This document shows, in pieces, positions 24,881 through 28,182 of a stretch of 64,000 bases of DNA. The number at the start of each line of letters is the position of its first letter. Positions within the stretch are counted from its first letter, which is position 1. The notes beneath the pieces were generated by a model. That model was not told where the DNA came from. It made no database searches and saw only the letters and a program-made list of their open reading frames with translations. This DNA is from Moraxellaceae bacterium (GTDB lineage Bacteria > Pseudomonadota > Gammaproteobacteria > Pseudomonadales > Moraxellaceae): assembly GCA_020697295.1 (NCBI GenBank), contig JAJFBF010000043.1, forward strand, positions 16,684 to 80,683, written 5' to 3'. Position numbers and translations under genes: made by a program.

Positions 24881-24941
24881 GCCCTAGCATTGGAGTTATG
24901 ACCGCCCGCGTAGCGGGTCGACCTCGAACGAGCTGTTAGCC
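24881..24941 (-). repeat. attC-like site 2
   Basis: Minus strand GGCTAACAGCTCGTTCGAGGTCGACCCGCTACGCGGGCGGTCATAACTCCAATGCTAGGGC. Confidence 0.85.
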
Positions 24942-25286
24942 CTGATGCCCCTTAATAAAAGAGATAATTTCTTCAGCAGACGAGCTTTGGGCGGCTTCAA
25001 GCAGCTCTCCAAGCACTGAAACAGCCAGCTCAAGGCTAATTTTGCCTTCTTTGTATTGCTCAAGACCGGCGGCAATAAAGCTTCCAACGATGAGCCTTTC
25101 CTGCTCGTTGAGCTCAGCCCGCTCATCTTCGCCCTCAAAAATTAGGAACGTATAGGGCGGCTCGTGATGAACCCTTTTTAAGTGAGATGGCTGCCAATCA
25201 TCGCCAATGACTATTTCGGCATCAAAGGGAATCTCCTTTTCTAAGAGTTGCAATCTCTTAATAAGTTCTGATGACTTCATTGCCAT
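24936..25286 (-). CDS. Cassette-encoded hypothetical protein
   Basis: 116 aa between attC-like sites 2 and 3; stop falls inside attC 2. Confidence 0.65.
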   Translation of the reverse strand: MAMKSSELIKRLQLLEKEIPFDAEIVIGDDWQPSHLKRVHHEPPYTFLIFEGEDERAELNEQERLIVGSFIAAGLEQYKEGKISLELAVSVLGELLEAAQSSSAEEIISFIKGHQG

Positions 25287-25296
25287 GTCTCATAAG

Positions 25297-25383
25297 GGCT
25301 AACGTTGAGTGAAGGCCGCGCGCAGCCGCCCTTTAAATGATGGCGCTGAAGGAGCCGCGTCGGCCTTGAACGATTGGTTAGGC
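25297..25383 (-). repeat. attC-like site 3
   Basis: Minus strand GCCTAACCAATCGTTCAAGGCCGACGCGGCTCCTTCAGCGCC...GGCCTTCACTCAACGTTAGCC. Confidence 0.88.
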
Positions 25384-25387
25384 GGCG

Positions 25388-25966
25388 CTAGAAGAGATGA
25401 TCAGCCATGTACTTTCCAATTACGCCAATCAATGCGCCGCCAACTGCTATGGCAACCTTGAGGGGAATGGAGTTGGCTTTATTAAAATCATCGCGAAGCC
25501 TATCAATAGTTTTTGTTTGCTCAGAAACAACGGCAGAAAGCTCTTTGATTGCCGTGTCGCTTGAGTCATTTTTACGGGCGTGCCCAACAATTTCATCTGC
25601 TGTGAGCGGCCGAGTATGGACACCAATTCTACGATAGTAGCCGCCTCGAGTTGCGATTAAGTGCGGAGCCGCTGCGACGCTGACGATCACAATATCGCGA
25701 CCGCCAATTTCATGAACCTCCACATTGATGTCAATGCGAGGGGACAGATATCGCAGCGCCGCATCAATTGCAGATTTTGCGCGACTGGCATTAACGCCGA
25801 TGAACTGAGCAGGCTCCTTTACACCTAGAATGAGGGCTCCGCCCTTGGCATTGGCGAACGAAGCTAGCTGATTGGCTATCACATCGGGAGGGGGAACGGA
25901 AGATTTCAGCTCAAGAGTCTCGTCCTCTCCACGAGCAATACGTTTCTCAATTTCAGATATTTCCAT
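25388..25966 (-). CDS. AlbA_2/Schlafen-like domain protein with C-terminal TM helix
   Basis: DETLELKSSVPPPDVIANQLASFANAKGGALILGVKE...GGYYRRIGVHTRPLTADEI; hydrophobic tail IPLKVAIAVGGALIGVIG. Confidence 0.8.
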   Translation of the reverse strand: MEISEIEKRIARGEDETLELKSSVPPPDVIANQLASFANAKGGALILGVKEPAQFIGVNASRAKSAIDAALRYLSPRIDINVEVHEIGGRDIVIVSVAAAPHLIATRGGYYRRIGVHTRPLTADEIVGHARKNDSSDTAIKELSAVVSEQTKTIDRLRDDFNKANSIPLKVAIAVGGALIGVIGKYMADHLF

Positions 25967-25990: not shown

Positions 25991-26075
25991 GCCTAACGTT
26001 GGAATTCAGCCGCAGCGGTAGGCTGTCAGCTGGAATGCCTTTTTAAGGCGGGCGCTTTACGTGCAAGAGTTCATA
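25991..26075 (-). repeat. attC-like site 4 (degenerate outer core)
   Basis: Minus strand ...GGCTGAATTCCAACGTTAGGC at one end; opposite core poorly conserved (TATGAAC). Confidence 0.55.
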
Positions 26076-26086
26076 AAGAAAGGTTC

Positions 26087-26665
26087 TTATTCCATTAGCC
26101 TGAACCAGTCTTTAACTGCTAAATTTAGCCTTACAATTTCATCTTCTGCTAATGGGCAGCAATGAGCGATTGGGCCTCGGAGCTGATTTAGACTGGTCAT
26201 GATTTTTGAGAATGCTTTCGGATTCTTAAATAGCCCGGAAAATGCATCCCAGCTATCTTGCACAATAGATGTCAGTTCGCCAAAGGTTGTATAATCAATC
26301 TTAAGCTCCGATCTTTCAGTGAATCCTGATTCGGCTTCCCTCTTTATATTTAATTCGACATTTTTCTTAATGTCCTCTCGTACTTTTAGTTCCCACCAAT
26401 TGTCGGAGTATGTCTCCTTCATTATTTGTACGATTAAGCTTCTAATGGATTTTTCTAGGCAATAAAATACTTCGTAATGCCTGGCCATCTCTTTGGCCTC
26501 TTGTCTAAACGCGGCATCAAATTGGGCGTAATAATCTTGCTCTTTTGCCGCTTCTTTTTCGTGCCTTAAAAGATCAATGCTGAGGCCGGCCTCAATTTTA
26601 TCAAGGGAATTCTCTGCAAGAGAATTTGATAATACGAATATTTTTATCCGTTCCTCGGTATCCAT
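26087..26665 (-). CDS. Swt1-like HEPN-domain protein (putative RNase)
   Basis: ARHYEVFYCLEKSIRSLIVQIM...NQLRGPIAHCCPLAEDEIVRL; RxxxxH HEPN motif. Confidence 0.68.
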   Translation of the reverse strand: MDTEERIKIFVLSNSLAENSLDKIEAGLSIDLLRHEKEAAKEQDYYAQFDAAFRQEAKEMARHYEVFYCLEKSIRSLIVQIMKETYSDNWWELKVREDIKKNVELNIKREAESGFTERSELKIDYTTFGELTSIVQDSWDAFSGLFKNPKAFSKIMTSLNQLRGPIAHCCPLAEDEIVRLNLAVKDWFRLME

Positions 26666-26666
26666 A

Positions 26667-27290
26667 TTAATCCTTTAGTAGGTTTTCTCTGAGAGATTTA
26701 AATATTGCATTATATACAGAGGGGTCGTCTGTTTTTGGGAGGACCAAGTTAATTGTATAGTTGAGGCCTAAATGAAGTTTTTTCTGTATTTTAGTGTCTT
26801 CTTCATTGCCTGTGGGTTTCTTGGCTGGGGGCTCGGTCTGCTCAATTTCCCCGGGTGCGGAATCAAAGTCTGCTAGTTGTTTTGCATTAAAAAAAGTGGA
26901 AACAATGTTTTCCACAACTCTGGAGTCGTGTGGCTCTCCAGTAGCTTCCATAACCAAGCCTTTAAAAGCTCTTTTGTCTAGATCGTGACAGTATTCATTT
27001 CGCGAGTAGAGCTCTGAATATCCAATTTTTATTGCTTTAGCTAAGGATGATTTTGAGGATGATGGGTTGCGAAATGACTTATACAAGTGAGTCGGAGTTC
27101 CGTCACTATTTAGTAGGCCTGCTTTTTTAGCCCAAGAAATAAAGGTTCGATAGTTTCCCCCTTTGAATCCAAGCTTAGTGGACAGAAAATCTGAGTTGAA
27201 GTTTTCAGGTGTTCCAGCCTCTTTGATTTTTTCCAATATCTTTGGGATGGAGCCAGGGGCAGACATGTAGGGAATATTTATCTGAGCCAT
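26667..27290 (-). CDS. DUF5343-like protein
   Basis: MSAPGSIPKILEKIKEAGTPENFNSDFLSTKLGFKGGNYRTFISWAKKAGLLNSDGTPTHLYKSFRN; 1 nt between its stop and the next ATG. Confidence 0.72.
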   Translation of the reverse strand: MAQINIPYMSAPGSIPKILEKIKEAGTPENFNSDFLSTKLGFKGGNYRTFISWAKKAGLLNSDGTPTHLYKSFRNPSSSKSSLAKAIKIGYSELYSRNEYCHDLDKRAFKGLVMEATGEPHDSRVVENIVSTFFNAKQLADFDSAPGEIEQTEPPAKKPTGNEEDTKIQKKLHLGLNYTINLVLPKTDDPSVYNAIFKSLRENLLKD

Positions 27291-27336
27291 ACTTAAAATT
27301 CCTTAAGGTTATTGTGGGAGTCCGCCTTCTCTTTAA

Positions 27337-27386
27337 GCCCTAACTTTTGAGCTCAGGGCCGTCGACCCTGCAGCGAATGGTTGGGC
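27337..27386 (-). repeat. attC-like site 5
   Basis: Minus strand GCCCAACCATTCGCTGCAGGGTCGACGGCCCTGAGCTCAAAAGTTAGGGC. Confidence 0.8.
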
Positions 27387-27398
27387 CCAAATTCTCCG

Positions 27399-28112
27399 CT
27401 ACCTGTTAGCGTCATTGGTGAATCCCAGGAATGAAAAGTCAATTCCCAGTTCGGCTGCTGACGAAATTTGCTCACGAAACTCATCATACACGCCAGGCAT
27501 ATGGATGCCTCCAAACTCCGCTCGCGATATAAAAGCCCCATTCAATTGCTCCTCAGTTGCCTTCATTAAATTAACTAAGACGTGGCGATAGAACGAGCAA
27601 ATAGCAGACAAAACCAATAATGAGCTCGATCTAGACCAGAACATGGCTACTTTGGGAATGCCGAGTTGCTTCCAATGCTCTCCTGTCATTGAGATTGGAA
27701 CCATCCATTCGGATCCGGCATCTTGAGGAAGGCCGATGCAGGCCTCAATTGCAGTCAATTTTGAATGTACAAACTCGTTTCGTGCCTTGATTAGTTCAGC
27801 AATCTTTTGGACCTCAGAGCAGCCGCGATCTAGATCTCCAAACCCTTGGAGACGGAGCGCAATTTCAACCTTTGGGATCGGCGATAGCTTGTCGAGCTCC
27901 TCAATGAGCTTCTTAGGGGACTCAGGAAGTGCCAAGAGGCAATTTGCGAAGCATTCAACGCTGAGTGCCGAAGCTCCGATCGATGCCCGCGCATATCGGC
28001 TACTAAGAAATGGGTTTGTCTCATTCACAGCCATCTTGTGCTGAAAGATCGCATCTGCCAGCAAGTCGAAGAAAGCTATGTATCTATAGGTCGCTGGAAT
28101 TGGATGCGTCAT
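27399..28112 (-). CDS. Cassette-encoded HEPN-like protein
   Basis: 237 aa; EVQKIAELIKARNEFVHSK contains the RNxxxH signature. Confidence 0.55.
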   Translation of the reverse strand: MTHPIPATYRYIAFFDLLADAIFQHKMAVNETNPFLSSRYARASIGASALSVECFANCLLALPESPKKLIEELDKLSPIPKVEIALRLQGFGDLDRGCSEVQKIAELIKARNEFVHSKLTAIEACIGLPQDAGSEWMVPISMTGEHWKQLGIPKVAMFWSRSSSLLVLSAICSFYRHVLVNLMKATEEQLNGAFISRAEFGGIHMPGVYDEFREQISSAAELGIDFSFLGFTNDANR

Positions 28113-28123
28113 CTGCTATTGGT

Positions 28124-28182
28124 GCCCAACGCTAGAGTTAAGGTGGCGGCGGAGGCGTCAACCTTGAACGACTTTTTAGGTC
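28124..28182 (-). repeat. attC-like site 6 (59 bp)
   Basis: Minus strand GACCTAAAAAGTCGTTCAAGGTTGACGCCTCCGCCGCCACCTTAACTCTAGCGTTGGGC. Confidence 0.88.

What the first reader, a model, noticed from the sequence alone, without database searches (positions are those of the whole stretch)
26087..27290. Two-gene cassette: DUF5343-like protein plus Swt1-like HEPN protein
Two tightly coupled minus-strand ORFs (stop and next ATG 1 nt apart) sit between attC-like sites 5 and 4, so they would move as one unit. The first has the DUF5343-like pattern (PGSIPKILEKI..FLSTKLGFKGGNYRTFISWAKKAGLLNSDGTPTHLYKSFRN); the second has a HEPN motif (RGPIAHCCPL). HEPN RNases are common abortive-infection or TA effectors, and integron cassettes have been reported to carry phage-defence genes. 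The pair could be a sensor/regulator plus RNase effector or a TA-like system.
Basis: partly seen in the sequence, partly recalled or inferred. Interest (0 to 1): 0.8.

Follow-up and report, generated by a model that had tools for sequence, protein, structure and literature searches.

The report
Two-gene RNase cassette, probable phage defence
Two tightly coupled genes, one for a probable RNA-cutting enzyme and one for its partner protein, sit between integron recombination sites; the same pair recurs across many bacterial phyla, sometimes again as an integron cassette, and is listed as an untested anti-phage candidate, but its function has not been shown.

Summary
ORF A (27290-26667) is Pfam DUF5343 (E 1.4e-49). 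ORF B (26665-26087) is Swt1-like HEPN (E 5.6e-14). They are 1 nt apart, between two attC sites. Both match PADLOC's phage-defence candidate PDC-M34 (A and B), so the pair is catalogued but, as far as I could find, uncharacterised. In 80 of 80 best A relatives from genome contigs a B gene follows directly; no third gene recurs. The HEPN catalytic R and H are invariant in 90 of 90. A has a winged-helix-like N-domain, an unconserved linker and a highly conserved 30-residue C-tail.

New here: the pair recurs as an integron cassette. Multi-copy attC families surround it in Lysobacterales, Eisenbacteria, Clostridia, Chryseolinea and Chitinophagaceae, against 0 of 20 control regions. The window's cassette is 41% GC in a 64% GC window and groups with Bacteroidota. 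At least one temperate-phage contig carries the pair beside a CI-type repressor.

Best reading: a phage-triggered or antitoxin-gated HEPN RNase (abortive infection). RNase activity, toxicity and defence are not shown; the A-B interface could not be modelled confidently; an operator-repeat test was negative.

The parts
25997..27343 (-). gene cassette holding both ORFs, from the G/TT point of attC2 to that of attC3
   Evidence: attC positions read from sequence; both flanking sites recur in relatives; 40.8% GC against 64.2% for the window
26667..27290 (-). ORF A, DUF5343 protein, 207 aa, PDC-M34A
   Evidence: PF17278 E 1.4e-49; PADLOC PDLC04589 E 3e-50
26871..27272 (-). N-terminal domain of A (residues 7-140), winged-helix-like in the AlphaFold model
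   Evidence: helices 12-24, 33-39, 45-57, short strands near 60 and 66, helix 68-74 and more; block pLDDT mostly 93-98
26676..26765 (-). conserved C-terminal tail of A (residues 176-205), after a low-confidence linker (about 145-174)
   Evidence: mean column conservation 0.81 against 0.59 for the N-domain and 0.21 for the linker; model
26087..26665 (-). ORF B, Swt1-like HEPN protein, 192 aa, PDC-M34B
   Evidence: PF18731 E 5.6e-14; PADLOC PDLC04592 E 6.8e-40
26162..26179 (-). HEPN R-X4-H motif RGPIAH (R163, H168)
   Evidence: R163, A167, H168, E71 and R75 identical in 90 of 90 sequences
27337..27386 (-). attC2, upstream border of the cassette
   Evidence: GCCCAAC...GTTAGGGC; 88-96% identical matches in G088, G006 and G035; fold z -1.8
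25991..26049 (-). attC3, downstream border of the cassette
   Evidence: 86-93% identical to four tandem sites beside an intact intI in congener G006; fold z -1.7
28124..28181 (-). attC1 of the array
   Evidence: consensus match
25297..25383 (-). attC4 of the array
   Evidence: fold z -2.6; similar sites on own contigs C14 and C17, C14 also bearing an intI
24881..24941 (-). attC5 of the array
   Evidence: consensus match

Best explanation
The cassette is one two-gene module. B is a HEPN endoribonuclease (inferred from profile and invariant R-X4-H). A is its controlling partner: a winged-helix-like domain joined by a flexible linker to a conserved C-terminal tail that probably docks on B and keeps it inactive or couples it to a trigger. 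I think phage infection (or loss of A) releases B, which cuts RNA and arrests the cell, giving abortive-infection type protection. Integrons carry it as a single self-contained cassette. Shown here: the genes, their linkage, the conservation pattern, the cassette context. Inferred: RNase activity, docking by the tail, trigger, defence.
For: B directly downstream of A in 80 of 80 genome loci, start within -17 to +17 nt of A's stop except L042 (start unresolved) and L030 (B read from an internal start); independent viral scans with A and with B share 7 contigs of 8 each. In 399 Pseudomonadota genomes the 6 strong PDC-M34B hits lie in the same genomes as A hits, next to them. A and B distances correlate, r 0.78 against at most 0.16 permuted, shared descent not removed. 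Catalytic residues invariant 90/90. Tail the most conserved part of A. The 3 loci whose DUF5343 partner is a different, DUF4145-like protein have a different tail class. No third gene family in the flanks of more than 3 loci. PADLOC defence candidate. Neighbours of 20 pairs match 19 PADLOC families at 1e-20 against 3 for control regions of the same genomes. Pair between an excisionase and a CI-like repressor in L102, and downstream of tail genes in L106. Established: many HEPN domains of defence and TA systems are RNases (PMC3710099).
Against: No activity data exist that I could find. The fused A-B model gave pTM 0.47, no confident interface, and no solved structure matched. No operator-like repeats upstream of A. 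The defence-neighbour comparison is small, uncorrected for redundant models, and some matches are generic helicases or phosphohydrolases. Many copies sit among ordinary genes. The R-X4-H motif does not prove nuclease activity.
Confidence: 0.55

Rival explanations
1. A plain type II toxin-antitoxin pair that stabilises the cassette array: A is a DNA-binding antitoxin that represses the operon and neutralises toxin B; phage protection is incidental.
For: Gene order with the DNA-binding-like protein first, overlapping or abutting frames, DNA-binding-like domain plus flexible linker plus conserved tail, cassette location.
Against: Best inverted repeats within 100 nt upstream of A are no better than in shuffles (mean fraction of shuffles at least as good 0.61); no sigma-70-like promoter was found in the cassette by the simple scan; in 20 genomes checked there is one copy per genome, and most copies show no sign of a cassette array to stabilise.
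Confidence: 0.27
2. [quoted passage not shown]
For: Swt1-like and Abi2/AbiF/AbiD HEPNs are grouped together (PMC3710099); AbiD/F are predicted to co-occur with RNA family RF03085 (PMC12165695).
Against: No Rfam match in the region; the cassette leaves only about 53 nt before A and 37 nt after B.
Confidence: 0.05
3. A regulatory or RNA-processing pair without a role against phages.
For: Function untested; A looks DNA-binding; many copies lie among housekeeping genes.
Against: Patchy distribution (1 of 98 relatives, 10 of 399 in the phylum over cut-off), carriage by integrons and temperate phage, and some defence neighbours.
Confidence: 0.13

Closest known systems
PADLOC candidate system PDC-M34 (genes A and B)
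   Same: Both proteins match its models over nearly full length and are adjacent.
   Different: No difference found in gene content; only a candidate listing, no experiment known to me.
HEPN RNase superfamily, Abi2/Swt1 group
   Same: HEPN_Swt1 profile match and invariant R-X4-H.
   Different: Short standalone protein with a DUF5343 partner; the 2013 survey passages I read list fusions to AAA+ ATPases, PIN, wHTH, TM segments and others, not this partner.
Integron-borne defence cassettes (Darracq 2025, Getz 2025, Kieffer 2025; seen only as cited in PMC12444791)
   Same: Candidate defence genes carried between attC sites.
   Different: I could not read these papers, so I cannot say whether this pair was among those tested.
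DUF5343 plus DUF4145-like pairs (L015, L016, L017)
   Same: DUF5343 protein with a conserved tail upstream of a small partner.
   Different: Partner is DUF4145-like (below Pfam cut-off), has GDKS(S/A)H in place of R-X4-H, and the tail is of another class.

Membership tests
PDC-M34 | protein A matches PDC-M34A | tested here: met
   PDLC04589 E 3e-50, residues 5-204
PDC-M34 | protein B matches PDC-M34B | tested here: met
   PDLC04592 E 6.8e-40, residues 2-189
PDC-M34 | the two genes adjacent | tested here: met
   1 nt apart
PDC-M34 | anti-phage activity | not testable with these tools
   no experiment; no paper found
HEPN RNase superfamily | HEPN profile match | tested here: met
   PF18731 52.8 bits over cut-off 27.5
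HEPN RNase superfamily | R-X4-6-H motif | tested here: met
   RGPIAH; R and H 90/90
HEPN RNase superfamily | HEPN fold | tested here: inconclusive
   all-helical confident model, but no Foldseek match to a solved HEPN
HEPN RNase superfamily | RNase activity | not testable with these tools
   bench assay needed
Integron gene cassette | one unit bounded by attC on both sides, same orientation as its neighbours | tested here: met
Complete integron (not only a cassette array) | adjacent intI | tested here: not met
   intI-like hits only on other contigs: CALIN
Type II toxin-antitoxin | two small overlapping or abutting genes | tested here: met
Type II toxin-antitoxin | palindromic operator for autorepression | tested here: not met
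   no enrichment of inverted repeats in 90 upstream regions
Type II toxin-antitoxin | toxicity of B neutralised by A | not testable with these tools
   bench assay needed
AbiF/AbiD type | associated RNA RF03085 | tested here: not met
   no match

The most novel reading that the evidence does not exclude
DUF5343-HEPN is a protein-only RNase defence module repeatedly packaged as an integron cassette in several phyla, in which a short C-terminal tail of the winged-helix partner docks and controls the HEPN enzyme, and the tail class switches together with the class of HEPN-like partner.
Probability: 0.4. Interest if true: 0.68.

Novelty: new member of a known kind. Interest (0 to 1): 0.52.

Why it matters
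A widespread two-gene unit whose minimal extent is marked by attC sites in unrelated integrons is an unusually clean test object for a HEPN defence or TA module of unknown trigger. If active, it would turn a bare PADLOC candidate into a mechanism, give a function to DUF5343, and add evidence that integrons across phyla store defence genes.

Tried and rejected
Foldseek of the A model against PDB and viral models, and of the fused A-B model against PDB: no match at E 0.001 (weak SspB similarity, prob 0.35, not used). Fused A-stop-B chain read from a relative (Gordonia, L081) as a stand-in for a complex: pTM 0.47, no interface claimed. PDB sequence search with both profiles: nothing credible. Operator search upstream of A: negative. 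Conserved third gene: none. Search for the tail on other protein types: only DUF5343-like proteins in 399 genomes. Plasmids and phages with A, and E. coli genomes with the pair's DNA: no match; B finds only larger or divergent Swt1-HEPN proteins on 4 plasmids. Rfam: nothing. My hairpin-only attC test downstream of B has a 5.7% shuffle rate and is used only where copies repeat or intI is present.

Full report
What is there. The two minus-strand ORFs are real and 1 nt apart. A is DUF5343, B is Swt1-like HEPN; both match PADLOC's candidate PDC-M34 over nearly their full length. No paper in the held open-access library names DUF5343, PDC-M34 or the Pfam accessions; subscription papers on integron defence could not be read.

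Cassette. attC-like sites lie on both sides and elsewhere from 28.2 to 24.2 kb. A DNA search of the array against 98 related genomes found the pair nowhere but its two border sites in several: the downstream site is 86-93% identical to four tandem sites beside an intact intI in congener G006. In the own genome, intact intI-like genes were found on contigs C14 and C30, none on this contig. The pair is 40-41% GC in a 64% GC window. In a tree of 59 pairs it groups with 11 Bacteroidota pairs (SH-aLRT 100), nearest Chitinophagaceae; quick tree, no bootstrap. Transfer from Bacteroidota is the likeliest reading, not proof.

Linkage. A profile scan of 85,462 species genomes gave 332 relatives of A; of the best 80 kept, all 80 have B next. 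L042's B start was not resolved and L030's B was read from an internal start (gap 138), so the -17..+17 nt range covers the rest. The set was chosen by similarity to A of this type, so more distant DUF5343 proteins may have other partners: of 10 Pseudomonadota genomes over cut-off, 6 including the window's have Swt1-HEPN and 3 a DUF4145-like partner; one (L018) I did not resolve.

Conservation. R163, A167, H168, E71 and R75 of B are identical in 90 of 90. In A the last 30 residues (0.81) are more conserved than the N-domain (0.59), across an unconserved linker (0.21); the model agrees. That shape suggests a docking tail; it is inference.

Recurrent cassettes. Repeated attC-like families on the coding strand surround the pair in L100 (Lysobacterales, 7-8 copies, both borders; genome intI 479 bits), L032 (Eisenbacteria, 3 copies, one right after B; intI 477 bits), L041 (Clostridia, 4), L029 (Chitinophagaceae, 4) and L021 (Chryseolinea, 5-6); L086 (Alteromonadaceae, intI 411 bits) has one attC-like site after B. 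Three or more copies were seen in none of 20 control regions on either strand. For L041, L029 and L021 no intI passed the cut-off, so those rest on the repeats and hairpins, and not every hairpin is strong (L100 downstream, L029 and L041 sites have z near 0 against mononucleotide shuffles). L086's 3-copy repeat may be another element. The copies were looked for after I had seen the window's cassette; the control is small.

Other carriers. In L102 the pair lies between an excisionase and a CI-like repressor with a CII-like gene beyond, a temperate-phage lysogeny region; in L106 tail genes lie upstream.

Function. HEPN RNase effector controlled by A is the best reading; TA and defence are not separable here. 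Neighbouring defence genes are somewhat more frequent than in controls (19 against 3 PADLOC families at 1e-20), a small comparison with redundant models. The operator test was negative and the interface was not resolved.

Noticed in passing
window 27399-28112 (-): The next cassette encodes a 237-aa protein without Pfam, NCBIfam or PADLOC match that contains KIAELIKARNEFVHSKL, an R-X4-H string like a HEPN motif; relatives 31-35% identical on Delftia and Enterobacter plasmids.
   Followed up: partly
window 25388-25966 (-): Neighbouring cassette: Schlafen AlbA_2 domain (PF04326 E 3e-16) with a hydrophobic C-terminal helix.
   Followed up: no
window 24936-25286 (-): Neighbouring cassette resembles the VC1380 family (E 1.1e-6, below cut-off).
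   Followed up: no
L015, L016, L017: DUF5343 proteins paired with a DUF4145-like protein whose motif reads GDKS(S/A)H without the arginine.
   Followed up: partly
L127: A DUF5343-like protein with the second tail class whose downstream partner position is taken by an IS3-type insertion sequence.
   Followed up: no
G000:C14 and C30: The genome carries two intact integron-integrase-like genes on contigs other than the window's.
   Followed up: partly
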